Source: Nitrospirota bacterium (GTDB lineage: Bacteria > Nitrospirota > Thermodesulfovibrionia > Thermodesulfovibrionales > UBA6898). Taken from it: a stretch of 39,856 nt of DNA. Shown here piece after piece: positions 4,480-39,856 of this stretch. The notes under the pieces are model-generated. The model was not told the origin of the DNA and searched no databases. It saw nothing but the letters and a program-made list of their open reading frames with translations. Position 1 is the stretch's first letter. Each line of letters starts with the position of its first letter. The stretch is from the NCBI GenBank assembly GCA_016215155.1, contig JACRLQ010000043.1, forward strand, positions 1 to 39,856, given 5' to 3'. Made by a program: the position numbers and the translations under genes.

Positions 4480-5325
4480 ATGGATTGGGGTATGAAAAAT
4501 CGTCTGTCGAGGATTATCAGGCCGGACGGCCGGACCGTTATGCTGGCGGTCGACCATGGATATTTTCTTGGCCCGACGACCGGGCTTGAAGACGCCGAGA
4601 AGACCATACGACCGCTGGTTTCCTATGCTGATGCGCTTATGCCGACAAGGGGTGTCCTGCGCGCGTCCGTTGATCCGTCCACGGACACCCCGATCGTCCT
4701 GAGGGTCTCGGGAGGAAACAGCATCCTGGGGGAACTCTCGGACGAGGGGATCACGGTATCGATGGAGGACGCGCTTCGAATGAACGTCTCGGCTGTGGCC
4801 CTGTCTGTTTATGTAGGCTCACCGAATGAAAAACAGACCCTGCTTAATCTCGCCAGGCTCGTCGATGAGGGGACGAGGTTTGGAATCCCTGTCCTCGCCG
4901 TTACGGCCGTAGGAAAGGACATGGCGCGCGACTCGAGGTATCTGGCGCTCTGCTGCAGGATAGCGGCTGAACTTGGCGCTCATTTTGTTAAAACGTATTA
5001 CTGCGAAGGGTTCGAGAAGATCGTAAAGACATGTCCCGTGCCGCTCGTCATGGCCGGAGGGAAGAAGCTTCCCGAATATGAGGCCCTTGAACTTACCCAT
5101 AATGCGATAAAACGCGGCGCCTCGGGAGTGGATATGGGCAGGAACATCTTTCAGGCAGAGGACCCTGTGGCCATGATACAGGCAGTTTCCGCCGTCGTCC
5201 ATGAAAATGCTTCCCCGAAGAAGGCCTTTGATCTTTACAATACCCTGAAGCTGTCGAAAAAGACGTCCCGGAAAAAGGGCCTTAAAGATGTTACCGCGAG
5301 CAGGGAAGAAATTAACAGGCATTAG
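4480..5325 (+). CDS. LsrF/DeoC-type class I aldolase-thiolase (3-hydroxy-5-phosphonooxypentane-2,4-dione thiolase-like)
   Basis: The 281-residue TIM-barrel protein carries segments I recognise from E. coli Lsr[12 protein letters not shown] at the N-terminus, [17 protein letters not shown], and [13 protein letters not shown] near the C-terminus. Lys171 in FVKTYY matches the Schiff-base lysine of this family. LsrF cleaves the phosphorylated autoinducer-2 breakdown product; archaeal relatives make aminodideoxyheptulosonate, and others are fructose-bisphosphate aldolases. There are no lsr transport or kinase genes nearby, only an MDR dehydrogenase, so the substrate is open. It lacks the roughly 30-residue N-terminal extension of E. 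coli LsrF. A strong TGGAGGTG lies at 4467-4474. The lysine- and arginine-rich C-terminal tail after LYNTLKL is extra. Confidence 0.85.
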
Positions 5326-5422
5326 TGCATCTTAACTTCCCTAAATCTGACGGTTTCTGTTAAAATTAACCTCCGTAAACAATGTGTTTTGATTTGCGGC
5401 TCAATAACTGGAGGTTTTAATA

Positions 5423-6580
5423 ATGGATTATTTTCTGACCGAAGAACAGGTTATGATCAGAGACCTTGCGAGGCAGATCGCTGAGGAGAAGATTGTGCCG
5501 GTGCGCGCCGAACTGGACGAGACAGGGGAATTCCCCTGGGACGTCATGAAGACGCTTGCCCAGTCCGACCTTTTTGGCCTGTTTATTCCCGAGGAATACG
5601 GGGGACTTGGAAAGGGCTGCCTGGAACTTACTATAGCGGTTGAAGAGCTCTCGAGGGCCTGTCTCGGTGTTTCGACGACGTTCGCGGCAAATGCCCTGGG
5701 CACGTATCCCATTCTGCTGTTCGGCTCCGATGAGCAGAAAAAGAAGTTCCTGCCTGACATAGCGGCCGGCAAAAGGCTTGTCGCATTCGGTCTGACTGAG
5801 GCCAACGCGGGCAGTGACGCCGGAGGCACGCAGACTACCGCGAGGCTTGACGGCAATGAATATGTTATTAACGGCACGAAGCAATGGATTACCAACGGGG
5901 GAGCGGCCGAAGTATATACCATCATAGCGATTACCGACCGGTCGAAGGGACCGCGGGGCGCATCAGCCTTTGTCATTGAGAAGGGCACCCCTGGTTTTAC
6001 CTTCGGCAAGAAGGAAAACAAGATGGGAATCAGGGCGTCTGCAACAACAGAGCTTATCTTTGACAACTGCAGGATACCCAAGGAAAACCTTATCGGGAAG
6101 GAAGGTATGGGGTTTGTTGTGGCCATGAAGACCCTCGACAACTCCAGGACGGGTGTAGGTTCACAGGGTGTGGGTGTTGCGCAGGGCGCGCTCGACGAAG
6201 CTGTCAAATTTGCCCGTCAGAGGGTGCAGTTCGGGCATCCGGTCATAACCTTTCAGGCCGTCCAGCATATGCTGGCCGACATGGCTACATCAATTGAGGC
6301 GGCAAGGGCGCTCGTCTATGCCGTATCCAGGCTGGTTGACAGCGGGTCAAAGGACATTTCCAAGGAGTCCGCGATGGCGAAGGTCTTTGCCACGGACATG
6401 GCCATGAGGGTTACGACTGACGCCGTCCAGGTGATGGGGGGGTCGGGGTATATGAAGGAGTATCCGGTCGAGAAGATGATGCGTGACGCCAAGATACTCC
6501 AGATATATGAGGGCACCAACCAGATCCAGAGAAATGTAATCGGACAGGCTCTGATAAAGGAAGCGGCCCGGCTTAAATAA
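5423..6580 (+). CDS. Acyl-CoA dehydrogenase (short-chain/butyryl-CoA type)
   Basis: This FAD flavoprotein of 385 residues interconverts acyl-CoA and trans-2-enoyl-CoA. The three canonical domains are present. Motifs include AFGLTEANAGSDAGG (signature 1) and QWITNGGAAEVYTI in the middle beta domain, and the C-terminal IYEGTNQIQRNVIG, whose Glu363 is the usual catalytic base of short-chain enzymes. GGAGG at 5411-5415 sets the start. It precedes etfB and ferredoxin-fused etfA, the order expected for a dehydrogenase that exchanges electrons with that ETF. A hairpin plus T-run after the gene (6618-6661) may separate or attenuate it from etfB. Chain length specificity is not readable. Confidence 0.93.
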   Translation: MDYFLTEEQVMIRDLARQIAEEKIVPVRAELDETGEFPWDVMKTLAQSDLFGLFIPEEYGGLGKGCLELTIAVEELSRACLGVSTTFAANALGTYPILLFGSDEQKKKFLPDIAAGKRLVAFGLTEANAGSDAGGTQTTARLDGNEYVINGTKQWITNGGAAEVYTIIAITDRSKGPRGASAFVIEKGTPGFTFGKKENKMGIRASATTELIFDNCRIPKENLIGKEGMGFVVAMKTLDNSRTGVGSQGVGVAQGALDEAVKFARQRVQFGHPVITFQAVQHMLADMATSIEAARALVYAVSRLVDSGSKDISKESAMAKVFATDMAMRVTTDAVQVMGGSGYMKEYPVEKMMRDAKILQIYEGTNQIQRNVIGQALIKEAARLK

Positions 6581-27176: not shown

Positions 27177-27199
27177 GAATTAATACCTCCGGCAAAGTG

Positions 27200-27205
27200 T
27201 ATAAT
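27200..27205 (+). promoter_or_regulatory. Perfect -10 box for moxR, possibly leaderless
   Basis: TATAAT lies 6 bases before ATG 27212. Transcription from it would begin at or next to the start codon. No Shine-Dalgarno precedes that ATG, and no good -35 is visible at the expected distance, so this may be an activator-dependent or leaderless arrangement. Confidence 0.4.
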
Positions 27206-27211
27206 ATAACA

Positions 27212-28147
27212 ATGAATGATAATATGATAAATCAGTCGGTAAAGCAATTGCAAAGCCGTATGGAGACTGTTCTGAGGGGTAAGCCGGAGGCGGTAAAGAT
27301 GTCCATCGTCAGCCTTCTTGCAAGGGGGAACCTGCTAATCGAGGACATCCCCGGAGTGGGCAAAACTACTCTGGCCTATGCCCTTGCCAGGTCACTTGAC
27401 TGCTCTTTCAGAAGAATTCAGTTCACAAGCGACCTCCTGCCGACCGACATTATCGGAGTCAATATATTCAATCAGGAGACCCATGGCTTCGAATTCAGAC
27501 CTGGTCCCATATTCTCGAATATCGTGCTTGCCGACGAGATCAACAGGACAAACCCCAAGACCCAGTCGGCCCTGCTCGAAGCCATGAATGAAAAGAAGAT
27601 CACAGTTGAAAACGATACCTATGTCCTCCCTGAACCTTTTATGGTCATAGCGACCCAGAACCCGATGGAATCACACGGGACTTTTCCGCTGCCCGAGAGT
27701 CAGCTGGACCGATTCCTGCTCCATATACATATCGGTTACCCGGACCCTGAGTTCGAACGCACAGCGGTCGTGGAACGCGCCAGCTTCGAACTGCTCCATA
27801 CACTTACGCCGGTACTGTCGAAGGCTGAAGTAATAGCTATGCAGACTGATGTGGAAAAGGTCCATACGGATGCCGGTGTCGTAGATTATCTGATGAGGAT
27901 AGTTGAAGAAACGAGGCGGCATAAGGATGTCCGTCTCGGCTGCAGCACGCGAGGGGCCCAGTTTTTCGTCAGGGCCGTCAAGGCGAATGCCTATTATGAA
28001 GGAAGGGATTTTATCGTGCCCGACGATGTAAAGACCCTGGCCCCTCTGGCCATAGGCCACCGGCTCATATTAAGGACGAGAAAAACCCTGTCTGACGCTG
28101 AAACAATCGTCCGTGACATTACGGAGAGACTTCCCGTCCCACTTTGA
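27212..28147 (+). CDS. MoxR-family AAA+ ATPase
   Basis: The 311-residue cytoplasmic ATPase has Walker A IEDIPGVGKTTLAYALA, Walker B IVLADEINRTNPKTQSALLEA, sensor region ATQNPMESHGTFPLPESQLDRF and the lid domain ending RLPVPL. MoxR proteins act as chaperone-like ATPases for neighbouring membrane or von Willebrand-like proteins. With the DUF58 and transglutaminase genes it forms a conserved three-gene unit in many phyla. I take ATG 27212; a GTG at 27197 in the same frame overlaps the -10 box. Its client is unknown. Confidence 0.92.
   Translation: MNDNMINQSVKQLQSRMETVLRGKPEAVKMSIVSLLARGNLLIEDIPGVGKTTLAYALARSLDCSFRRIQFTSDLLPTDIIGVNIFNQETHGFEFRPGPIFSNIVLADEINRTNPKTQSALLEAMNEKKITVENDTYVLPEPFMVIATQNPMESHGTFPLPESQLDRFLLHIHIGYPDPEFERTAVVERASFELLHTLTPVLSKAEVIAMQTDVEKVHTDAGVVDYLMRIVEETRRHKDVRLGCSTRGAQFFVRAVKANAYYEGRDFIVPDDVKTLAPLAIGHRLILRTRKTLSDAETIVRDITERLPVPL
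27219..27247 (-). promoter_or_regulatory. Putative argH promoter inside the moxR start
   Basis: On the minus strand TTGCTT (27247-27242), 17 bases, then TATTAT (27224-27219). The predicted start is near 27212, about 36 bases before the argH GTG, with GGAGGT in the leader. It lies within the first codons of moxR and faces the moxR -10 box. Confidence 0.4.
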
Positions 28148-28163
28148 TAACCCATAATACGCC

Positions 28164-29177
28164 ATGAAGACGACAAAAGAGGGGAAACGTTTCATCGTTG
28201 CGGCATTTCTTATTCTGGTGGCCGCCTTTAACACGGGGAACAATCTGATTTATCTTGTCCTTTCGCTCATGTTCGCCTTTTTGTTTTTGTCCCTGCTCAT
28301 TCTGAAGACAAATCTGTCCGGAGCAGAGGTGGTGATAACCGCCGAGGGCCCTGTCTATGCCGGAGACGAGACCACCCTTGATATCAGCCTGATCAACAGG
28401 AAAAAGACCTTCCCCTGCTATTCCATTAATGTGTCCGATAGGGAGATCGGAATGAAGTCCTATTTTCTATTCGTCCCGGCTTCGGGCGCGTTGTCCCGGA
28501 AGGCCGCGGCCGTATTCAAAAAAAGAGGGTTTTACCGCGGCGATAATGTCCGGATCGTCAGCGGCTACCCTTTTATCCTTTTTTCGAAGACGATAGCCGG
28601 CAGGTCGTCGGCGAATATCCTTGTCTATCCGGCGTATTATGACCTGAACGCCCTTGACCATGAGGTCCGGGAAAAGGAGGGGGAGGGAAGGGCGGTCATC
28701 AGTGGAAAGGGGGATGAAATGCTCTATATGCGACTTTTCAGGGCCGGTGACGATTTCAGGAATATTCATTGGAAGTCCCTTGCAAAATCGTCCGCCCTTA
28801 TGGTCAAGGAATACTCTTCGAATGAGACGGCAAAGATTACGCTGTTCCTCGACAACAGCCCGGCTGAAGACAGGGACAATTTCGAATTCGAAAAGGTCAT
28901 ATCGATCACCGCTACGTTAGCGAGAGATTACCTGGAAAAGGGTTTTTTTGTTCGTATGATGTCCGGCAGTGAGGTCACCCCTTACGGGTATGGCTATGAA
29001 CATCTCCTTGTCATATTGGACCGTCTGGCCCTGATCAGGGAGGAAGAAGTTGACGCTGAAGCCATTTCCGAAGACGAAAAAGACGGCCTTACCATCTGTG
29101 TGCTGAGGTCGGCTGATAAAGGGGGCACAGGAGTTGTCCCCTCGTGCGATCTGGTCATATATGCCGACTCTGTATAA
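28164..29177 (+). CDS. DUF58-domain membrane protein
   Basis: The 337-residue protein starts with two membrane helices (VAAFLILVAAFNTGNNLIYLVLSLMFAFLFLSLLIL is the hydrophobic stretch, about residues 10-45), followed by a beta-rich part and the DUF58 core YMRLFRAGDDFRNIHWKSLA and LMVKEYSSNETAKITLFLD, a von Willebrand A-like fold. It follows moxR by 16 bases and overlaps the transglutaminase gene. The partner role in the MoxR system is well known as a pattern but not understood in mechanism. Confidence 0.9.
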   Translation: MKTTKEGKRFIVAAFLILVAAFNTGNNLIYLVLSLMFAFLFLSLLILKTNLSGAEVVITAEGPVYAGDETTLDISLINRKKTFPCYSINVSDREIGMKSYFLFVPASGALSRKAAAVFKKRGFYRGDNVRIVSGYPFILFSKTIAGRSSANILVYPAYYDLNALDHEVREKEGEGRAVISGKGDEMLYMRLFRAGDDFRNIHWKSLAKSSALMVKEYSSNETAKITLFLDNSPAEDRDNFEFEKVISITATLARDYLEKGFFVRMMSGSEVTPYGYGYEHLLVILDRLALIREEEVDAEAISEDEKDGLTICVLRSADKGGTGVVPSCDLVIYADSV

Positions 29178-31101
29178 ATTTACCACGGCCCTGCTGGCCC
29201 TTACGGGTTGTATCAGTCTTGCCGTTACCGGGGAGATCAACCCGTTAATGTCGATAAGCGCCCTTGCCCTGCTCCCCGGATACTACCGTTTTATAAAAGG
29301 TGAAAGGCATGCCGGGACTGCTTTGATCGGCACGCTCTCCGTTATGGCCCTGGCTGTATTCGTTTTCGATGCGCTCCTCGTGTCGGGGGACTTCTTCATC
29401 GCCGTGGCGCATCTGACGATTACATTCCAGGCGTTAAAGAGTTTTGATCTCAAAGAACCATGGGACCACCTGCAGGTATATTTTGTTTCCCTGCTTCAGC
29501 TGATAATTGCGTCCGAGCTTACGAGCGCGCTTGCATTCGGTGTTATTTTCGTATTTTTTATGCTTCTGCTGGTGACGGCCATGGTCCTTTCCCACTTCAT
29601 GAAAGAGGGCAGGATGTCCGGACTGTCTTTGAAAAAACCCGTTATGGTCATGTCATTTTTGACGGTTGTGGTCACAGTGGTCTTTTTTGTGGCCCTGCCG
29701 AGGACGCCCTACAGATTTCTGGGAAAGACCCATATCAAGGGGATAAAGACATCGGGATTTTCCGAGCAGATGGATTTTGGGTCCCTTAGCAGCATCAAAC
29801 TCGATCCCTCGGTCATAGCGCGCGTCGAACTGAGTCGTGATTTCAGAGGGCCTTACTACTGGCGGGGACACACACTCGATCACTTCGACGGTAAATCATG
29901 GCGCAATACCCTCAAGGACCGCCGCAGAATATACAGGTCGGCCGCCGACGAATTCATCCTCTCCGATTACGACAGGGCCGGGGCGCTCGGGCAGACTTTC
30001 TATCTTGAGCCGATCGACTCGGATGTCCTTTTCAGCCTTGAACAGGCGCGGGGCGTCAGGGCGGACGCATACGCGATTTATGTCGATACGGCGGAAAGCA
30101 TTTATGTGCCTGGAAAAAGGTCCCGGAGGATCAAATACACGGCTTACAGCATCCCGGGAGCCGAATATCCGGGGTCTGTCGAAAAGGCCTACATCCAGCT
30201 GCCCTCAGATAACAAACCTGTGGCCGACCTCGCAAAATCCGTCACGGCGGGTCTAAGGACGGACGCCGAAAGGGCTTCCGCCGTGGAGCGCTACCTAAGA
30301 AACAGCTATACGTATTCACTTACGTTGTCTCCATCGGCGGGGGGCGTAAATCCCGTTGAGGAATTTCTGCTGAGGACGAAAAAGGGCTACTGCGAACATT
30401 ATGCCGCCGGCATGGTTATCATGTTGAGGAGTCTCGGGGTCCCGGCAAGGGTGGTGACGGGTTTCTACGGCGGCGAAAAAAATGAGTATGGCGATTACAC
30501 GATCATCAGAAGCAGTGACGCCCATTCATGGGTAGAGGCCCTTATAGGAGGTTCATGGAAAAGATTCGATCCGACGCCTCCGGTATCGAACGAGAAGCGT
30601 CAGGCATACGCCCTGGTTTGGGATTCGGTAGAGATGGCCTGGGCCAGATACGTTGTCGGGTTCAGTTACAAAGACCAGAGATTTGCGCTCAATTATCTTG
30701 CTACTAATCTCGATCTCAGGAGGCTGCCCAATATCTTCAAACCGGGTCAGCCCGGCATGAAGAGCGATCCGTACATTATACCGGTGCTTGGTCTTTTTAC
30801 CCTCATCGTATATTTATTTTATCGTTTATGGGCCTGGTATCGGGGGAGAAAGAGGTATGGCCCCCTGACATCCGAATATGTGGCAATAAGGCGAATGCTC
30901 GCAAAAAAAGGGATCAGGATTGCGCCGTCTTCGACATCCGGCGATGTCTTGAGCGTGACCAGGCAATATCATTTCAATAAGGACCTGAGCGAATTTATTG
31001 CATTGTATGAAGGCGCGAGGTTCGGACGGAAGGATCCAGATGCCTTGATAAAGAAGGCAGACGTTCTCTTGCAGGCGATTAAGAAATCCGGATTGCGATA
31101 A
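29161..31101 (+). CDS. Membrane transglutaminase-like protein (DUF3488/TgpA type)
   Basis: The roughly 646-residue protein has about six N-terminal membrane helices, an extracytoplasmic transglutaminase domain, one more helix (IPVLGLFTLIVYLFYRLW) and a cytoplasmic DUF4129-like tail. The catalytic triad is complete: Cys in KGYCEHYAAGM (codon 30391-30393), His in SSDAHSWVEA (30523-30525) and Asp in WKRFDPTPP. I chose ATG 29161 (MPTLYKF); a TTG at 29134 gives nine more residues. Either start overlaps DUF58. TgpA is an essential Pseudomonas protein of unclear substrate. The transglutaminase-fold domain of the next gene lacks the Cys seen here. Confidence 0.9.
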   Translation: MPTLYKFTTALLALTGCISLAVTGEINPLMSISALALLPGYYRFIKGERHAGTALIGTLSVMALAVFVFDALLVSGDFFIAVAHLTITFQALKSFDLKEPWDHLQVYFVSLLQLIIASELTSALAFGVIFVFFMLLLVTAMVLSHFMKEGRMSGLSLKKPVMVMSFLTVVVTVVFFVALPRTPYRFLGKTHIKGIKTSGFSEQMDFGSLSSIKLDPSVIARVELSRDFRGPYYWRGHTLDHFDGKSWRNTLKDRRRIYRSAADEFILSDYDRAGALGQTFYLEPIDSDVLFSLEQARGVRADAYAIYVDTAESIYVPGKRSRRIKYTAYSIPGAEYPGSVEKAYIQLPSDNKPVADLAKSVTAGLRTDAERASAVERYLRNSYTYSLTLSPSAGGVNPVEEFLLRTKKGYCEHYAAGMVIMLRSLGVPARVVTGFYGGEKNEYGDYTIIRSSDAHSWVEALIGGSWKRFDPTPPVSNEKRQAYALVWDSVEMAWARYVVGFSYKDQRFALNYLATNLDLRRLPNIFKPGQPGMKSDPYIIPVLGLFTLIVYLFYRLWAWYRGRKRYGPLTSEYVAIRRMLAKKGIRIAPSSTSGDVLSVTRQYHFNKDLSEFIALYEGARFGRKDPDALIKKADVLLQAIKKSGLR

Positions 31102-31361: not shown

Positions 31362-34300
31362 ATGAAGGGGAAGACAAAAGAGAGGGAATTCCTGTCAAAG
31401 CAGTTCATCGCGGTTAATGTTTTTATTCTGTTTATCATTACATTTCAAATGCCTGGGCTGCCTGATGCAGTGACGCCGTGTTCCGCGCAGATTTATAACC
31501 AAGTGGCCGACACTAACGGAGCGCTGGGGCCGGAAGGGGTGGCGGCGATAAGGATAATAGAATCGGGCAATAGACTTATTAAAACCCTGGAAAAAGGGGA
31601 GGCCATAGAGAGTCATATAGATAATGTTATTAGGGATATATCTGCGTTTGAGGTTGAAGATGCGGAGAGCCTGAGGCGATTCGGGGACACTGAAGATAAG
31701 CTTAAATCCACGGGATCGTCAAAGGCATGGAAAAGACACCGGGAGGCGCTTGATAAATACAGAGCAAGAGCGACAGAAGTAAAAGGCCATATCGAAGCGG
31801 TAAAAGAGGCAAGAAAAAAGAAGGCGCAGGAGGGGGAGATTAAGCAGAGGATTGTAACCCTTGTCGATTCGCTGGAAAAAGACAAGCTGCCTTATGAGTA
31901 TAAGCTTAAAGATTCCAGCAGGCTTCCATGGAGGGTGGCGGAGCCCGGTGAAATCGCCTTGCTTGGCAACGCCCCTGTCGTTTCGGGTTCTGCGGCCCAA
32001 CCTTTACGTAATCCCCCGGCGTCAGATGACCTTTCTCCCACTCCTGACGTCCAGATCACCCCTGAGGTACAGGCCCTGGCAAAGAGTCTCGGCAACGATC
32101 CGCTTACTATATTCAGGTATGTTTACAATAACTACAGCTACACACCCTATTACGGTTCAGTGAAAGGCTCTGTTGATACCTATTGGGAGAAGGAGGGGAA
32201 CGATTACGATCTTTCGTCTCTCCTCATAGCCCTTCTCAGGGCCTCGAACGTGCCTGCCAGGTACGTGAAGACGAAGGCACGGGTTTCAGCTGAAAAACTG
32301 ATGAAAATAACGGGCATCAACGACCCGATGGCGGCTATGGAGTATCTTGATATGTCTGAGGTCCCTGTCGGGTATTATGCTTCCGGTGGGATTATATCAC
32401 ACGTTGAGGTCGAGCATGTCTATGTCGAGGCATACATACCTTATGGGAATTATCGAGGCACGGGAGAAGACGATACTGGAAAGATCTGGGTACCCCTTGA
32501 CGTTAGCTTCAAGGAAATAGAACCTGTGCAGGAAGGAACAGACATCGCCTCTCAGATGGGTTTTGACTGGAAGGCGTTTTCGAATGAGTACCTGGGCGGA
32601 CTTGTGAACATGACGCCTCTGGATTACTACAGGGGCAAAGTGGGAGGGTATGTATCGCAAACCTATCCGGGCCAGAGTATTGATTCTCTCAAGAGAGTCG
32701 ATAGGATTCGGACAAAACTGTTCGACTTTATACCGGGTACGCTGCCGTATGAGACGGTGGGGACGCCGGAGCTGTTTTCTGCCATACCCAATGAGCAAAG
32801 GCACTATGTAAGGTTTACGATCCCTGAGGTGCTGGATTATGCGGCAAGCCTGCCGGAGGTGTCTGGCCGGAGGTTGACGCTTTCCTTCGAAGGGGCGGAT
32901 GCGGAAGACCAGGCATTGATTGAGGCATATGGGGGGATATTCAAAACACCGCCTTATCTGATAGAGGTGAGGCCCATTTTGAGGATCGACGGGATTAGGG
33001 CGGCGGAGGGGACTGTAATGAGCGCAGGCATAGGGACCGGCTTCAGCATAACCTACACGAGGCCCGGTGGAAAGACGGAGGTCTTTGACCATCACATTAC
33101 AACAGGCAGTTTCAATGCGGTAGGGATAACGACGGGCCGGGTGAGGCCTGAGTTTCTGACTATAGCCCAGGTGGAGCCCTCTGAGGAGCCATACATAGCG
33201 AAGATGCTCCATAGCCTTGTGATGAAATACCATGACCGGCAGAACATAGCGAGGCAGACACTTGGGGACACGATGAAGATCAAAAGCAGGATGCTCATCA
33301 GTGAGGCGTTGGTATCGTCCAGGGAGGATATCAAATGGGCGCTGGGCATGACGCCTATGAGTTTCGAGATGTCGGGGTTCATGATAGACGCCAAGGAGAT
33401 GGTCTCGGGGATCATGCCGGTGGATGGTTATGACCGTAAGAAAATAATAGACTTTGCGATGGTAAGCGGACACGAGGCGTCGTATCAGGAAAACGCGGTG
33501 TTTGAAGACAGCATGTTCTGGGTGAGCGGGTTGTCTGCGGTGAAGGGGTTGCAGATGCTCAAGGCCATGGGGATCAATGTCATAGAACTTGAGCCTCACA
33601 CGACGTATATGAACTATGCCCTTCCTGAGGTTGTCATAGAAGACATCAATAACGCCCTCAACATGGGCTGGAGGGTGATAGCGCCGGAGACGACCGGTGG
33701 GCTCCCGGCAGTGCCATTTATCAAATACGACCCGGAAACAGGTTCGGCGGGGTATATGATTGCGGCCAGGGCAGGAGGGCTTAACTGGAATATATCGCCT
33801 ATTACACACGAGGAAGATTTGACCTTCATAAAAGATGCTCTGGAGCAGAGCGGCCTTCTTAGGATAAACTTTGAGATACTTGATCCGTTGAGTCCGTATA
33901 TCGCAGCGATGGGAGATTATTTCATTGCGTTGCTGCGAGTAGTTGTAGTGGCTGATGCATATGCAGTGCAGGTGGTAAAGGAAAAGCCCGTATATTTTGA
34001 TACGGATTATCGGCATTATAAACAAGGGCAATGGCCTCTTTATGCTGTGTCGCCAGGGCAGTATAAATACAAGTTTGACGGACGGGAATTGCTCAGATTC
34101 CATGTGGCAGAAATAATTGTGACCAATGAAGCGCCTTCATGCGGGCCACTTGTGTATCCATACAGGTGCGGAGAGTCCTTCGTTGCAAGACGCGACAGAA
34201 CCGGAGATACCCTGAAGGCTACAGTAATAGTCGGTACGAATGCAAATGTAACCTGGACTTGTAATGGCACTGCTCCCAACGGAGGCAATAACGGCAACTG

Positions 34301-34958
34301 TAACTCGCTACCAGGTTCCGGAACAGGGCCGGTGTTCAGTTTCATTCCGAACCCGCCTCAGGCCGCCAGCGGAAGAACACTTCCTCTCTCGTATCAGTTG
34401 AAGGCAACAGTGGATATCGGAACGATGTCAAGGGACATTACAAAAGTTATAACGCAGGATGGTCTTGATGAATTGAGGCAAGAATATGAAGACCTTCCGC
34501 AAAGAGATTCGCAAGAGCGTTCCTGCTTCGATAAAGATGTGCCAACGTACGATGCACTTTTGGGTTTAAATGCTGAGCCGGATCGTCATGAGTGGCATAT
34601 ATTGAGATTGCACAATTTAAATCAACATGCTGTAGACACAGACAATAACTTTATTAGCGGCGATCTAAGAGTGACAAGTGGATATAGATGTCCAATAGGT
34701 AATCAGCGAGAAGTCAATAGAGGCGCGGGATCGATGACATCAAACCATCAATATGGGCGAGCATTTGACTTTAATCAGCAATCTAGCGGCGATAACTATG
34801 ATGCATTTGACGCAGCACGTAACGTCGGCGCGGGTGGTGATTCATATTTGCGCGCATCAAATGGAACACGATATTTTTTAAGAAATGGGTTCCCTCCAAG
34901 TCCGGGTCAACTTCCGTCAGGGGTCTCATATGTGCAAGGACATGTTGCATGGCAATAA
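31362..34958 (+). CDS. Large exported protein: pseudo-transglutaminase domain, beta-rich middle, C-terminal M15_3-type peptidase domain
   Basis: The 1198-residue protein has an N-terminal hydrophobic segment (residues 14-35) with a likely cleavage near CSAQ, then a charged helical stretch (60-175). A transglutaminase-fold domain follows (about 235-385). There Asp281 (GNDYDLSS) occupies the usual Cys place, while His352 (EHVYVEAY) and Asp380 (WVPLD) are kept. Residues 410-870 are a long unassigned region. A Cys-containing Ig-like part and a LRQEYEDL junction (about 1025-1065) lead to a C-terminal domain with SGYRCPIGNQ, then His1129 and Asp1136 in SNHQYGRAFDFN and His1194 in YVQGHVAW. These fit peptidase M15_3 metal ligands (D-Ala or L-Ala-D-Glu type peptidoglycan peptidases). 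A leader promoter precedes it and a HEAT-repeat gene follows. Confidence 0.85.
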   Translation: MKGKTKEREFLSKQFIAVNVFILFIITFQMPGLPDAVTPCSAQIYNQVADTNGALGPEGVAAIRIIESGNRLIKTLEKGEAIESHIDNVIRDISAFEVEDAESLRRFGDTEDKLKSTGSSKAWKRHREALDKYRARATEVKGHIEAVKEARKKKAQEGEIKQRIVTLVDSLEKDKLPYEYKLKDSSRLPWRVAEPGEIALLGNAPVVSGSAAQPLRNPPASDDLSPTPDVQITPEVQALAKSLGNDPLTIFRYVYNNYSYTPYYGSVKGSVDTYWEKEGNDYDLSSLLIALLRASNVPARYVKTKARVSAEKLMKITGINDPMAAMEYLDMSEVPVGYYASGGIISHVEVEHVYVEAYIPYGNYRGTGEDDTGKIWVPLDVSFKEIEPVQEGTDIASQMGFDWKAFSNEYLGGLVNMTPLDYYRGKVGGYVSQTYPGQSIDSLKRVDRIRTKLFDFIPGTLPYETVGTPELFSAIPNEQRHYVRFTIPEVLDYAASLPEVSGRRLTLSFEGADAEDQALIEAYGGIFKTPPYLIEVRPILRIDGIRAAEGTVMSAGIGTGFSITYTRPGGKTEVFDHHITTGSFNAVGITTGRVRPEFLTIAQVEPSEEPYIAKMLHSLVMKYHDRQNIARQTLGDTMKIKSRMLISEALVSSREDIKWALGMTPMSFEMSGFMIDAKEMVSGIMPVDGYDRKKIIDFAMVSGHEASYQENAVFEDSMFWVSGLSAVKGLQMLKAMGINVIELEPHTTYMNYALPEVVIEDINNALNMGWRVIAPETTGGLPAVPFIKYDPETGSAGYMIAARAGGLNWNISPITHEEDLTFIKDALEQSGLLRINFEILDPLSPYIAAMGDYFIALLRVVVVADAYAVQVVKEKPVYFDTDYRHYKQGQWPLYAVSPGQYKYKFDGRELLRFHVAEIIVTNEAPSCGPLVYPYRCGESFVARRDRTGDTLKATVIVGTNANVTWTCNGTAPNGGNNGNCNSLPGSGTGPVFSFIPNPPQAASGRTLPLSYQLKATVDIGTMSRDITKVITQDGLDELRQEYEDLPQRDSQERSCFDKDVPTYDALLGLNAEPDRHEWHILRLHNLNQHAVDTDNNFISGDLRVTSGYRCPIGNQREVNRGAGSMTSNHQYGRAFDFNQQSSGDNYDAFDAARNVGAGGDSYLRASNGTRYFLRNGFPPSPGQLPSGVSYVQGHVAWQ
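32586..33165 (+). repeat. Parent segment of a downstream partial duplication
   Basis: This part of the large gene, residues about 410-600, matches 35830-36165 in two blocks: about 32586-32640 and about 32888-33165. The roughly 250 bases between them are missing in the copy, and the deletion keeps the frame. Identity is high by eye, for example EAYGGIFKTPPYLIEVRPIL is unchanged. Confidence 0.85.
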
Positions 34959-34980: not shown

Positions 34981-35823
34981 ATGAAAATACCCGTTTTTAG
35001 TGTATGTGTGATTATTTTTTGGAATATAATTAGTCCTGTCTCTGGGCTGGCAGAATCCAGAGCTGATTTGATACCCATCAAAGAGAAGTACTATCAAAAA
35101 TTAATTAGTTCTGATTTTTCGCAGCGCTATGAAGCAACAAGGTACTTCAACCAAAAGCTTGAGAAGGAAGATCTTACTGATGATGTTATTAAAGAATCGC
35201 TGAATTTATTAAAAAATGAAGCAGAGCGGATAATAAAGTTTAGAGAACTTTCACTCAAACCCGGTGTCCAAAGAATAGAAGAAAAGGTCCCTCATAATTT
35301 GCTTTATATGAATGATGAAGAATTTGCAGTATATTATGGTGATTTATGCGAGATTATTGGAAAATCAGCAAAGAAGGATTATCTGGCAATACTTATTGAG
35401 CATTGCTTAGAGCCAAAAGTATTTCTTTACTATGGCGCTGACGCAGTCGATCCAATCATTAGCACACTATTAGTGTCTATTTTACCAGATAAAAAGATGT
35501 CTGCAATATTTGTCTTAGGTGAGATGCTTAAGCCGAAGAAAGAGGGTTATATCACGAGTGGGGTTGATAGATCAAAAATTATGGCAGTTTTGATTCAAGC
35601 GACATCTGATAGTGATAGAAATATAAGGCAGGCATCAGTAAGAGCAATTGGTGATTCTGGTGATAAAGATGCCGTTCCAGTGCTAACGGAGATTGCCAAT
35701 AACGATCCGTTTTATTTCGAGAAGACGGATAGGACAACTGGCAAAATAATAACGAGGTACGCTGTCAGAGAGGAAGCAAAGAAGGCATTGGAGAAGATTA
35801 GAGAGAAAGACATTGCGAAATAA
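34981..35823 (+). CDS. Exported HEAT-repeat-like protein (candidate immunity protein 1)
   Basis: The 280-residue protein starts at ATG 34981, preceded by GAGGG about eight bases upstream; the frame continues upstream into the large gene but without a signal sequence. The N-terminus is a signal peptide (MKIPVFSVCVIIFWNIISPVSG). The body is all-helical, with two or three HEAT-like repeats in the C-terminal half: SDRNIRQASVRAIGDSGDKD is the clearest. It is paralogous to the protein at 36202-37062: both have a YYGDL/FYGDF helix, GADAVDPII/GENAVEPLI, and VREEAKKALEKI/VRDEAARTITRL. The DNA is visibly AT-rich (16 G+C in 35161-35220 by hand count). It follows the large gene by 22 bases. Binding partner unknown. 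Confidence 0.8.
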   Translation: MKIPVFSVCVIIFWNIISPVSGLAESRADLIPIKEKYYQKLISSDFSQRYEATRYFNQKLEKEDLTDDVIKESLNLLKNEAERIIKFRELSLKPGVQRIEEKVPHNLLYMNDEEFAVYYGDLCEIIGKSAKKDYLAILIEHCLEPKVFLYYGADAVDPIISTLLVSILPDKKMSAIFVLGEMLKPKKEGYITSGVDRSKIMAVLIQATSDSDRNIRQASVRAIGDSGDKDAVPVLTEIANNDPFYFEKTDRTTGKIITRYAVREEAKKALEKIREKDIAK

Positions 35824-36193
35824 GAACAAAGGTTACCTGGGCAGTCTTGTGAACATGACGCCGCTTGAATTCTACAAGGGCAAATTCGAGGGGGCGGATG
35901 CGGACGACAAGGCGTTGATTGAGGCATACGGCGGGATATTCAAGACTCCTCCATATCTTATAGAGGTGAGGCCTATTTTGAGGATCGACGGGATGAGGGC
36001 GGCAGAAGGCAGCGTTATGAGCGCCGGCACAGGGACCTGCTTCAGCATAACCTATACGAGACCCGGCGGAAAGACAGAGGTCTTCGACCATCACATTACC
36101 ACCGGCAGTTTCAATGCGGTTGGGATAACGACGGGCCGTGTGAGGCCTGAGTTTCTTGCCCTCCTGGATGGTAAGAATTTAATAGATCTATAG
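35824..36193 (+). pseudogene. Internally deleted fragment of the large exported protein gene
   Basis: The frame reads GYLGSLVNMTPLEFYKGK joined directly to FEGADADDKALIEAYGG and ends RPEFLALLDGKNLIDL-stop. It matches residues about 410-427 and 509-599 of the 1198-residue protein, with the 81 residues between deleted in frame. There is no signal peptide, no Shine-Dalgarno and no complete domain. A TTG at 35813 is the only start-like codon and lies inside the preceding gene. I treat it as a remnant of a second copy or a displaced module whose 3' neighbour is the second HEAT-repeat gene. Confidence 0.8.
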
Positions 36194-36201
36194 GAGGAAT
36201 T

Positions 36202-37062
36202 GTGAACAAATTCATTATTTGTGCCTGTTTCTGCTTGTTAATTTTGACAGTAGCTTCCTCAGCTATGAGTGACGTAATGGCCTCCGACGCGCAAAACCTA
36301 ATAAAACTATTTGAAGGCCCTCGTACTGCAAAATATGAGGAAAGAAGGAATATGATTAAAAAGGTTAAAGAGGGGAAACTTCAGGTTTCAGGTGAGATAA
36401 AGAAGTTGCTTATTGATAGATTTGAAAAGGCGAGCAACTTGCAGGAGGCATACGTCGAGAAGTTAGGAAAACAAGGAATTTCTGAGGGTAAAGCAACAGA
36501 TCGCTTCTATGAAGAATACGGCGGGCAAGAGTATGCGCAATTCTATGGCGACTTTGCAGCATTAGTTGCAGCGTTCAAAGACACGCGCGCAATTCAGTCA
36601 CTGCTGAAAGGTCTGTATTATTATGGCGGCAACGTTTTGCCAACAGAAGTTATTTCAACAGGAGAAAATGCAGTAGAGCCATTAATATCTGAAACTAAGT
36701 CGCGGAACAAACTTTTGAGAAGAATGGCCTTCTTCGTTCTGTCTGTATGGGCTAATGCTCCGGTAGCGTATCAGGACTACAGTATAGGTGAAGAATTAGC
36801 TATAAAGAATATCACGCAACTAAATGATTTAAAAGAAATCTTTCTGAAGGCTTTGAGCGATGAGGAGAAAGATATCCGCTTAAGTGCGGCTTATGGGTTA
36901 GGCGTATTTCCAGAAGCGGCAGTTATACAAAAATTAGAAGAAGTTGTCAGCAGTGATTCTTATCAGACTAAATACAGTAAGCAATATATAGTTAGAGATG
37001 AAGCAGCTCGAACTATAACGCGCCTAAAAAAGAAAATGGCATCAGATGATGCCTCGAAGTAA
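36202..37062 (+). CDS. Exported HEAT-repeat-like protein (candidate immunity protein 2)
   Basis: The 286-residue protein starts at GTG 36202 with AGGAGG at 36192-36197. It has a clear signal peptide (NKFIICACFCLLILTVASSAMS) and a helical body with HEAT-like units (LLRRMAFFVLSVWANAP, EKDIRLSAAYGLGVFPEAAV). It aligns by eye with the protein at 34981-35823 across its length, although identity is low, so the two are divergent paralogues. It follows the remnant of the large gene by 8 bases. No enzyme motif is seen. Being exported, it would act in the periplasm or on the surface. Confidence 0.8.
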   Translation: MNKFIICACFCLLILTVASSAMSDVMASDAQNLIKLFEGPRTAKYEERRNMIKKVKEGKLQVSGEIKKLLIDRFEKASNLQEAYVEKLGKQGISEGKATDRFYEEYGGQEYAQFYGDFAALVAAFKDTRAIQSLLKGLYYYGGNVLPTEVISTGENAVEPLISETKSRNKLLRRMAFFVLSVWANAPVAYQDYSIGEELAIKNITQLNDLKEIFLKALSDEEKDIRLSAAYGLGVFPEAAVIQKLEEVVSSDSYQTKYSKQYIVRDEAARTITRLKKKMASDDASK

Positions 37063-37232: not shown

Positions 37233-39856
37233 ATGAATAAAGTGATCAGGTCACTATTCCTAATTATCATATCAGCGATCTTCTGTGCGGCGTCTCACGC
37301 TCATGCGAGCAGTCCTGAAGTCACGCGCGGTCTCTCATGGCTTAAGAACAGCCAGAAACCAGCAGGAAATTGGGGTGCTCAGAACAGCTTCCGGGATACT
37401 GCCGCCGCGGTTGACGCTCTTAAGACTCTTGGTGACGTGAGTCAGTCCTATTCACTTGCCATCGGGTGGATGAATGGTTCTTCCGTTGAAAGCAACGATT
37501 ATCTGGTCAGACGGGCCATGTCTCTGGCTAGGGCAGGAATTGACGTCAGAGTTCAATTGGAACAGTTCATTCTTTATCAGAACAATGACGGAGGCTGGGG
37601 GTATTCAGCTGGCTTTGAGAGCAATCCCTACGACACCGCCATGGTCTTGTACGCCTTCAAGACATCTCAATTCCATAGCCCGAATTCCGCAGCCAAGGCC
37701 GTCTCCTACCTTCTTTCAAAACAAAATACCGACGGCAGCTGGAGTGTGCTGAAGGACACACCCGGAGACCTGGCGGCAACTGCCCTCACCGCAATAGCGC
37801 TCAATAATTACGGCGACTCCACCCTCGCGTCGGGGCCTCTTGAAAGCGGGGCTTCATGGATAAAGTCCAAACAAAATTCCGACGGCGGGTTTGGGAATTC
37901 CCCCTCTACAGTCCACGGCACAGTAACTGCGGTCAAGACCCTGCTGGAGTGCGGCAGGCTTCAGTCTTCTCAGTTGCAGCCTGCCCTTGCGTATATCGCC
38001 TCGGGCCAGGCAGGTGACGGCAGTTGGGGCGGGCAGCCGTTTGATACGGCCATGGCCCTGCAGGTCCTTGGCGGGTTAAAGCCGAACCTGTCGATCTCAG
38101 GCGCAGACTTTACCCTGTCCGCTTCAGCGGTAAAAAGCGGAGAATCTGTCCGGCTATCTGCGACTGTGCGAAACACCGGTTCCGAGGACGCCAACAATAT
38201 TCCGGTTAAAATATTTCTGGAAGCTCCTGACCACACGAATTCAGAGCTCATTGCAGCAGAGACGATTTCCGGTCTGCCGGTCGGCGGCTCATATCCAATA
38301 TTAATGGATATTGATACAAAGGGCAGGGATGGCCTCTATCTCGTGACGATTAAAGTTGATCCTGACAACACGCTTGACGAATCCTCGAAACAGGATAATG
38401 AAAGCTCCCTCGATCTGGCCATTGAAGCCACAGCAGATCTGGCGCTTGTGAAGGAAGACATTCAATTTTCGCAGAATCCGGCGTATGCCGGAGATGATAT
38501 CACAATTTCAATTTCGGTCTCAAACAGCGGCAACTATCCGGCGTTGAACGTTAACGTTGCATATTATCTTGACGAAATATCACCCAAAACACTTATTGGG
38601 ACCAGCAAACTGCCTCCTGTCGAAGCAGGGAAAACCGCCCAGAGCAGCACAGTTTGGAAGGCGAATAAAACAGGCTCGGACATTGCCGTCTACGTTGTCG
38701 TTGACCCTGTTAACTCGATCAGGGAGTTGACTAAAGACAATAACATCGCAGCCTCTTCCCTTGTAGTGATGCCTGTAACGGAACCGAACCTTACGGTATC
38801 CTACAAAGACCTTTCGATAGATCCGCCCCTAGTAAATCAAGGCGGCAGAGTGGAGATATCTGCCCTCATAAGAAATGAGGGGCTGACTGCGTCCGGTTCC
38901 TTCGTTGTGGGATTTTATATGGGTGACCCATCGGCAGGGGGCGTACTTCTTGGGAGCAAGACCGTGGCCGGCATTGCCGCCCTTTCAGGTTCTCAAGTAA
39001 GTTTGATGTGGGAAAACATTTCCGCAAGCGGACAGATGCTGATTTTTGTGAAGGCCGATGTTCTAAACGCTATTCTGGAATCCGCTGAAGATGATAATAC
39101 CGCATTTGTATCAATGAGGGTCCTCAGTCCTCCTGACCTTACGATTACAACCAATTCTCTGACTTTTATGCCGTCCGTGGCCCAGGAGGGTGACAAGGTA
39201 ACTCTCTATGCGGCACTTGCTAACATTGGGGACCAGGATGCCCCTGAATTTACGGTGAACGCATACGAAGGGAACGCCCTCATCGGTACGAGTAATATCT
39301 CAAGTGTTCTTGGTAAATCCCAGACAGTGGCGACTTTTGTTTATGACACCACCGGAAAGTTGGGTAACCATGATATCAGTATCATTGTCGACCCGGACAA
39401 CAGGGTTAGTGAGATCAGCGAAACCAACAATCAGGCAGGGAAAGGTTTTGTAGTATTCAAAGCCGATGAACTGCTGTCGGAGAGGTATATATCCCCAAAT
39501 GGCGATGGGATCAAGGATTCGACCCTGTTTTTCTTCAAATTCTCCTCTCCGCAATCGCCGAGGGTCCAGGTCCGTGACTGGAACGGACTGATAATGAGGA
39601 CATTTGACAGTCAGGCCTTCCAAAATACCGCATCAGGGACTGTTTTATGGGATGGGTTGAATGACTCTGGGCTGGTTGTGGATGACGGTGAATATAAAAT
39701 ACAGGCCGTTGACCCGGAAGGCGCTATTTTGCAGGAAGCGTTGATTGTAGTTGACAACAACAGATCTTCTTTCGAAGATGCTCTGAAAACCGGCAACTTC
39801 CAGAAAATTAATCTTATGGCCCTAGTCCCTTCACCTGTAGAATTTGATGAGACACA
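37233..39856 (+). CDS. Large exported protein: terpenoid-cyclase-like toroid, four CARDB domains, FlgD-like Ig domain; 3' truncated
   Basis: The frame starts at ATG 37233 after GGGGGG and stays open to the window end, so the gene continues. There are 874 complete codons here. A signal peptide (VIRSLFLIIISAIFCAASHAHAS) is followed by an alpha/alpha-toroid of prenyltransferase/squalene-cyclase type, with repeats QNNDGGWGYS, QNTDGSWSV, QNSDGGFGNS and AGDGSWGGQ (residues about 30-285). Next come four CARDB-like units (about 290-740), each containing V(R/S)N-like strands and ending in a PDN(T/R)..E..E.DN motif. The last visible part, RYISPNGDGIKDST and VLWDGLNDSG, resembles FlgD/CHU_C-type Ig domains used by surface proteins. 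No catalytic residues of a cyclase are recognisable, so a binding or adhesive role is likely. Confidence 0.85.
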   Translation, partial: MNKVIRSLFLIIISAIFCAASHAHASSPEVTRGLSWLKNSQKPAGNWGAQNSFRDTAAAVDALKTLGDVSQSYSLAIGWMNGSSVESNDYLVRRAMSLARAGIDVRVQLEQFILYQNNDGGWGYSAGFESNPYDTAMVLYAFKTSQFHSPNSAAKAVSYLLSKQNTDGSWSVLKDTPGDLAATALTAIALNNYGDSTLASGPLESGASWIKSKQNSDGGFGNSPSTVHGTVTAVKTLLECGRLQSSQLQPALAYIASGQAGDGSWGGQPFDTAMALQVLGGLKPNLSISGADFTLSASAVKSGESVRLSATVRNTGSEDANNIPVKIFLEAPDHTNSELIAAETISGLPVGGSYPILMDIDTKGRDGLYLVTIKVDPDNTLDESSKQDNESSLDLAIEATADLALVKEDIQFSQNPAYAGDDITISISVSNSGNYPALNVNVAYYLDEISPKTLIGTSKLPPVEAGKTAQSSTVWKANKTGSDIAVYVVVDPVNSIRELTKDNNIAASSLVVMPVTEPNLTVSYKDLSIDPPLVNQGGRVEISALIRNEGLTASGSFVVGFYMGDPSAGGVLLGSKTVAGIAALSGSQVSLMWENISASGQMLIFVKADVLNAILESAEDDNTAFVSMRVLSPPDLTITTNSLTFMPSVAQEGDKVTLYAALANIGDQDAPEFTVNAYEGNALIGTSNISSVLGKSQTVATFVYDTTGKLGNHDISIIVDPDNRVSEISETNNQAGKGFVVFKADELLSERYISPNGDGIKDSTLFFFKFSSPQSPRVQVRDWNGLIMRTFDSQAFQNTASGTVLWDGLNDSGLVVDDGEYKIQAVDPEGAILQEALIVVDNNRSSFEDALKTGNFQKINLMALVPSPVEFDET

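What the first reader, a model, noticed from the sequence alone, without database searches (positions are those of the whole stretch)
35824..36193. In-frame-deleted orphan copy of the large gene's core
A 370-base fragment repeats residues 410-427 and 509-599 of the large protein, joined without a frameshift across an 81-residue deletion. It keeps high identity, so the duplication is recent or is still recombining with the parent. It sits between two paralogous HEAT genes, which is what tip/immunity replacement by homologous recombination would leave behind.
Basis: seen in the sequence. Interest (0 to 1): 0.6.

Follow-up and report, generated by a model that had tools for sequence, protein, structure and literature searches.

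The report
Leftover piece of a bacterial toxin
Between two probable immunity genes lies a broken piece of a second copy of the neighbouring, tip-swapping secreted toxin gene; it is a fossil of how bacteria replace toxin tips, a process already known from other toxin systems, here in an under-studied Nitrospirota bacterium.

Summary
ORF 35813-36193 repeats codons 410-426 and 509-599 of the 1198-aa protein at 31362-34958 (86% and 89% DNA identity; E 1e-97), joined in frame across an 82-codon deletion. It occurs nowhere else in the genome. The parent belongs to a family in Nitrospirota, Desulfobacterota and others with the anatomy of polymorphic toxins: signal peptide, transglutaminase-like domain lacking its catalytic Cys, conserved core ending at a GY..DP.TG..GYMI motif, then unrelated tips (here M15-like; elsewhere NlpC/P60, phospholipase-like, membrane-spanning). 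Relatives carry 5'-truncated orphan core+tip modules, some with paralogous immunity-like genes. The fragment is a more eroded version: an island of core-like composition (GC3 0.67) between AT-rich secreted HEAT genes (GC3 0.34, 0.38), its tip gone. 'Recent duplication or ongoing recombination' does not: dS is 0.55 and dN/dS 0.09, so the copies diverged for long as functional sequence before this one broke. Whether it arose by tip displacement or decay of a tandem copy cannot be settled without sister strains. Toxin and immunity roles are inferred. Verdict: a real but ordinary fossil of a known process, in a little-described, RHS-less variant of polymorphic toxin.

The parts
31362..34958 (+). 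Parent gene: 1198-aa secreted protein; Transglut_core-like 245-380 (catalytic Cys position is Asp), conserved family core to about residue 806, variable tip after that
   Evidence: Pfam; family alignment; identity to the closest relative falls from 0.85 (761-800) to 0.38 (801-840) and about 0.17 beyond
32589..32639 (+). Parent counterpart of fragment block 1 (codons 410-426)
32640..32885 (+). Parent stretch missing from the fragment (82 codons)
32886..33157 (+). Parent counterpart of fragment block 2 (codons 509-599)
33750..33779 (+). End-of-core motif GYMIAARAGG (797-806); border between constant core and exchangeable tip
33780..34958 (+). Tip: linker/Ig-like stretch, then Peptidase_M15_3-like domain with SGYRCP (1106), SNHQYGRAFD (1127) and a C-terminal GHVAW (1193)
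   Evidence: Pfam M15_3 E 3e-4, below the gathering score; no relative of the tip in 230 genomes of the class beyond generic M15 hits
34981..35823 (+). H1: secreted HEAT-repeat protein (signal peptide by eye), candidate immunity protein of the current tip
   Evidence: Pfam HEAT_2 E 2.5e-10; immediately follows the toxin gene; no full-length relative except H2 in 396 genomes of the phylum
35813..36193 (+). Fragment ORF (126 aa from a TTG), a remnant of a second core
35834..35884 (+). Fragment block 1
   Evidence: 86% to 32589-32639
35885..36156 (+). Fragment block 2
   Evidence: 89% to 32886-33157; dS 0.62, omega 0.06
36157..36193 (+). Non-homologous AT-rich tail whose stop codon overlaps the AGGAGG of H2; possibly the last codons of the lost tip (inference)
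   Evidence: sequence
36202..37062 (+). H2: second secreted HEAT-repeat protein, candidate orphan immunity gene
   Evidence: Pfam HEAT_2 E 1.2e-5, below the gathering score; 24% identical to H1 over its whole length

Best explanation
The fragment is a dead remnant of a second copy of the polymorphic-toxin gene next to it. The parent makes a Sec-exported protein whose constant part (inactive transglutaminase domain plus core) carries an exchangeable C-terminal tip, here an M15-type peptidase probably aimed at cell-wall peptides; the next gene (H1, an exported HEAT protein) probably neutralises it. A second core-plus-tip module once stood between H1 and H2. It lost its 5' part, 82 codons inside the core, and everything from codon 600 to almost the end of its tip; its immunity gene H2 survived. 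The likeliest route is that a new tip with H1 was inserted by recombination in the core, pushing the old core end, tip and H2 downstream. Shown: homology, deletion, selection history, composition island, tip variability in the family, orphan modules in relatives. Inferred: toxin and immunity roles, the order of events, and that the last codons before H2 are the end of the lost tip.
For: Unique two-block homology. Omega 0.09 with dS 0.55: 30.5 silent vs 12.5 replacement changes, binomial P 2e-10 against neutrality, so the divergence was built up while functional. Core-like GC3 of 0.67 against 0.34 (H1) and 0.38 (H2). Family anatomy: constant core to the GY..DP.TG motif, then NlpC/P60, phospholipase-like, membrane or M15 tips. 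Orphan 5'-truncated core+tip modules in G078, G008, G057, G006 and G016 and in Geothermobacter; in G008 the orphan sits next to the full gene and each of the two homologous tips is followed by its own small membrane protein, a parallel to H1/H2. Published precedents: immunity-gene strings as remnants of tip replacement (PMC3482391), displaced orphan cdiA-CT/cdiI and rhs-CT fragments (PMC4927057; PMC3967940).
Against: The fragment does not reach the core end, so it is not a standard orphan module: no tip is left to identify. H1 and H2 share ancestry, which a tandem duplication explains as well as displacement by a foreign cassette. No sister strain was available. No toxicity or immunity is shown; the M15 match is below Pfam's gathering score and its structure prediction failed (pLDDT 31).
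Confidence: 0.7

Rival explanations
1. Decayed tandem duplicate: the whole toxin-immunity unit (core, tip, HEAT gene) was duplicated long ago, H1 and H2 diverged as immunity genes of two diverging tips, and the second toxin gene later decayed by deletion without any tip exchange.
For: H1 and H2 are paralogous over their whole length and are each other's only full-length relatives in the sampled phylum; tandem full-length copies exist in a relative (L040); in G008 tips diverge faster than cores (core dN 0.09, tip dN 0.33).
Against: Core divergence (91% identical protein in block 2) is far smaller than H1/H2 divergence (24% identity), so one duplication date would need very fast immunity evolution or core homogenisation; homogenisation is argued against by dS 0.55.
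Confidence: 0.25
2. Selected recombination substrate: the core piece is kept because it lets new tip-immunity cassettes recombine in, or lets the locus rearrange.
For: Orphan core pieces recombine with the main gene in Salmonella rhs (PMC3967940).
Against: The fragment leads to no tip, so recombination through it would remove the tip and fuse the core to a short dead end; 330 bp at 86-89% identity is a poor substrate; no conservation data.
Confidence: 0.08
3. Functional small protein: the 126-aa frame is translated, for example to couple translation of H1 and H2 or as a decoy binding partner.
For: Intact frame; starts inside H1's end and stops at H2's ribosome-binding site; low omega.
Against: No convincing ribosome-binding site for its TTG; no signal peptide, although the family is exported; the low omega is explained by history before truncation (the fragment branch has 9 replacement and 14 silent changes).
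Confidence: 0.06
4. Assembly artefact (chimeric repeat).
For: Metagenome-derived assemblies of relatives often end inside this gene family (G000:C32, G002:C53).
Against: The copy is 11-14% different from the parent with mostly silent differences; nothing else in the genome matches it; its boundaries sit neatly between two genes.
Confidence: 0.02

Closest known systems
Orphan rhs-CT / cdiA-CT modules (Salmonella rhs, PMC3967940; E. coli cdi islands, PMC4927057)
   Same: Fragment of the constant part of a large toxin gene downstream of the main toxin-immunity pair, on the same strand, before another immunity-like gene, without translation signals.
   Different: Here the toxin-coding tip is gone and the core is internally deleted; the core is not Rhs or CdiA; dS is high, whereas the Salmonella pair is 95% identical over 522 bp.
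Polymorphic toxins with inactive N-terminal transglutaminase domain (Zhang et al. 2012, PMC3482391)
   Same: Signal peptide followed by a transglutaminase-fold domain lacking a catalytic residue (Cys position is Asp here), variable C-terminal domains, toxin-then-immunity gene order.
   Different: Zhang et al. say these are followed by RHS repeats; Pfam finds none here and the core is of another kind.
Imm-HEAT immunity proteins (Zhang et al. 2012 tables)
   Same: HEAT-repeat proteins directly downstream of toxin genes.
   Different: H1 and H2 carry signal peptides and sit next to an M15-type tip, not the Ntox34 or Tox-REase-7 domains listed there; sequence membership was not tested beyond the generic Pfam HEAT models.

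Membership tests
Polymorphic toxin system | Constant N-terminal part with abruptly different C-terminal domains across homologues | tested here: met
Polymorphic toxin system | Export signal or secretion marker | tested here: inconclusive
   Hydrophobic N-terminal segment read by eye in the parent, H1 and H2; no signal-peptide predictor available
Polymorphic toxin system | Toxin followed by cognate immunity gene on the same strand | tested here: inconclusive
   H1 starts 22 nt after the toxin stop; cognate function not testable here
Polymorphic toxin system | Standalone or orphan tip cassettes carrying core fragments | tested here: met
Inactive-transglutaminase RHS toxins (Zhang 2012) | Catalytic residue of the transglutaminase lost | tested here: met
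   Cys position is Asp in EGNDYD/CNDFD in all members printed
Inactive-transglutaminase RHS toxins (Zhang 2012) | RHS repeats after the transglutaminase domain | tested here: not met
   No RHS match in the parent or in eight relatives
Orphan toxin module (rhs-CT/cdiA-CT type) | Core fragment lacking start signals downstream of the main gene | tested here: met
Orphan toxin module (rhs-CT/cdiA-CT type) | Fragment continues into a toxin tip | tested here: not met
   Homology ends at codon 599-600; about 11 unrelated codons and a stop follow
Peptidase M15 (tip) | Zinc-site motifs SxHxxGxAxD and a C-terminal His | tested here: inconclusive
   SNHQYGRAFD and GHVAW are present, but the Pfam score of 21.3 is below the 23.2 cutoff and no fold was obtained

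The most novel reading that the evidence does not exclude
The locus belongs to an undescribed class of Sec-exported, RHS-less polymorphic toxins with an inactive transglutaminase core, envelope-attacking tips, exported or membrane immunity proteins and a dedicated secreted alpha-toroid/CARDB partner, in which core fragments like this one record serial tip replacement in Nitrospirota.
Probability: 0.35. Interest if true: 0.5.

Novelty: new member of a known kind. Interest (0 to 1): 0.3.

Why it matters
It is a readable fossil of toxin-tip turnover in a bacterial group whose antagonism is hardly studied. It shows that the displacement model known from rhs and cdi also fits an RHS-less transglutaminase-core toxin family. 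The dN/dS result shows that such remnants can derive from long-separated functional alleles rather than from fresh local duplication.

Tried and rejected
Recent duplication or gene conversion: rejected by dS 0.55. Other nucleotide copies in the genome: none. Identifying the lost tip through relatives of H2: no full-length relative of H1 or H2 in 176 genomes of the order or 396 of the phylum, only generic HEAT hits; none of H1 on plasmids. Relatives of the M15 tip: none in the class or on plasmids beyond generic hits, none in the PDB by sequence. AlphaFold on the tip alone failed (pLDDT 31); H1 gave a helical-repeat model of moderate confidence (pLDDT 61) that matches armadillo/HEAT-like solenoids, which says nothing about the partner. 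Homology between the fragment's tail and the parent's tip end: none. A short-form relative ending at codon 596 (G000:C32) proved to be cut by the contig end.

Full report
Observation. The two-block repeat is real. The fragment ORF runs 35813-36193 (TTG start inside the end of the upstream HEAT gene). Bases 35834-35884 match 32589-32639 (86%) and 35885-36156 match 32886-33157 (89%); the missing 246 nt are exactly 82 codons, so the frame is kept. The whole-genome search finds no other nucleotide copy in 3.43 Mb. At protein level the genome has two distant paralogues (C32, cut by the contig end, and C31).

What the parent is. The 1198-aa parent has a Transglut_core match at 245-380 and a weak Peptidase_M15_3 match at 1102-1163. 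In the transglutaminase domain the Cys position holds Asp (EGNDYD) in every family member printed, while the His and Asp remain. Thirty-two of 176 genomes of the order carry the family, and named loci extend it to Desulfuromonadaceae, Geobacteraceae, Geothermobacter and a Bacillus. Homologues align up to a motif of the type GYI..DP.TGAGAYMISGG..GG (GYMIAARAGG at residues 797-806 here) and are unrelated beyond it. The tips include NlpC/P60 domains, a prokaryotic phospholipase A2-like domain and membrane-spanning tips. Against the closest relative (G019, Nitrospirae bacterium WY3.bin57) identity is 0.55-0.85 over residues 241-800 and about 0.17 after 840. This is the anatomy of a polymorphic toxin. 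Zhang et al. [quoted passage not shown] no RHS repeat was found here.

Orphan modules in relatives. Besides full genes, the survey finds 5'-truncated core+tip pieces: five in G078, one each in G008:C13, G057:C42, G006:C212 and G016:C45 (some lie close to contig ends), and two in Geothermobacter. In G008:C13 a full gene, a small membrane protein, a 474-aa orphan (starting near parent residue 516) and a second small membrane protein follow each other. The two tips are homologous (dN 0.33) and so, by eye, are the two membrane proteins, while the cores are closer (dN 0.09). That is an undamaged version of the arrangement in the window: toxin, immunity, orphan core piece, paralogous immunity.

Selection history. 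Over 110 homologous codons, fragment and parent differ by 30.5 silent and 12.5 replacement changes: dS 0.55 (bootstrap 0.35-0.82), dN 0.05, omega 0.09 (0.04-0.18); neutrality is rejected (P 2e-10). With G019 as outgroup, the fragment branch holds 14 silent and 9 replacement changes, the parent branch 4 and 3. So most divergence built up while both were functional, and the break is comparatively late. This rules out a fresh duplication or continuing homogenisation. Between-species divergence within the genus is larger (a MoxR gene is 67-72% identical in protein), so the donor was probably closer than any sampled congener.

Composition. Core GC3 is 0.62 and the fragment's homologous part 0.67, while H1 (0.34), the fragment's tail (0.30), H2 (0.38) and the parent's tip (0.40) are AT-rich; the next gene returns to 0.54. 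The fragment is an island of core-like DNA between AT-rich cassette genes.

Flanking genes. H1 and H2 are predicted exported HEAT proteins, 24% identical over their whole length; no other full-length relative was found in 396 genomes of the phylum. An exported immunity protein suits a tip that attacks the cell wall. Imm-HEAT proteins are on record. The fragment's stop codon overlaps the AGGAGG of H2, as expected if its last codons are the end of a former toxin gene; this is inference.

Mechanism and uncertainty. Best reading: a new tip with H1 entered by recombination, the old core end, tip and H2 were pushed downstream, and the old core and tip were then eroded by deletion. Decay of a tandem duplicate without tip exchange is the main rival. 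Sister strains would decide; none was in reach. The published models for orphan modules (fossil or silent reserve, PMC4927057; immunity-gene strings as remnants, PMC3482391; recombination with the main gene, PMC3967940) cover what is seen. Without a tip, the fossil model fits best.

Verdict. Real, explained by a known process and ordinary in itself; the RHS-less toxin family and its recurrent neighbour gene are the more interesting part.

Noticed in passing
37233-39856 (+): The next gene (secreted alpha/alpha-toroid, squalene-cyclase-like domain plus four CARDB repeats) recurs within about 8 kb of transglutaminase-core genes in many genomes, including Geothermobacter and Bacillus sp. EB01. Of 15 strong relatives (E below 1e-29) in genomes that carry the core, 11 lie on the same contig within 8 kb of it (comparing). 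It may be a delivery or anchoring partner of the toxin.
   Followed up: partly
L125 (G078:C38), about 5056-5470 on the minus strand: Another decayed copy joins the transglutaminase region directly to the late core in frame (..RYMSGT|MELVNVKPEIKL..), so internally deleted core copies are not unique to the window.
   Followed up: partly
G078 (L048, L049, L124-L127): One 6-Mb genome of the order holds ten core matches, with several full genes and about five orphan modules: a good place to study tip exchange.
   Followed up: no
27197-31101 (+): A MoxR / DUF58 / TgpA-type transglutaminase operon lies just upstream of the toxin gene; whether this neighbourhood is conserved was not checked.
   Followed up: no
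L128 and L052 (G008:C6 and C4): In two copies in one genome the transglutaminase part and the rest of the core are in different frames, which could be pseudogenes or split genes.
   Followed up: no
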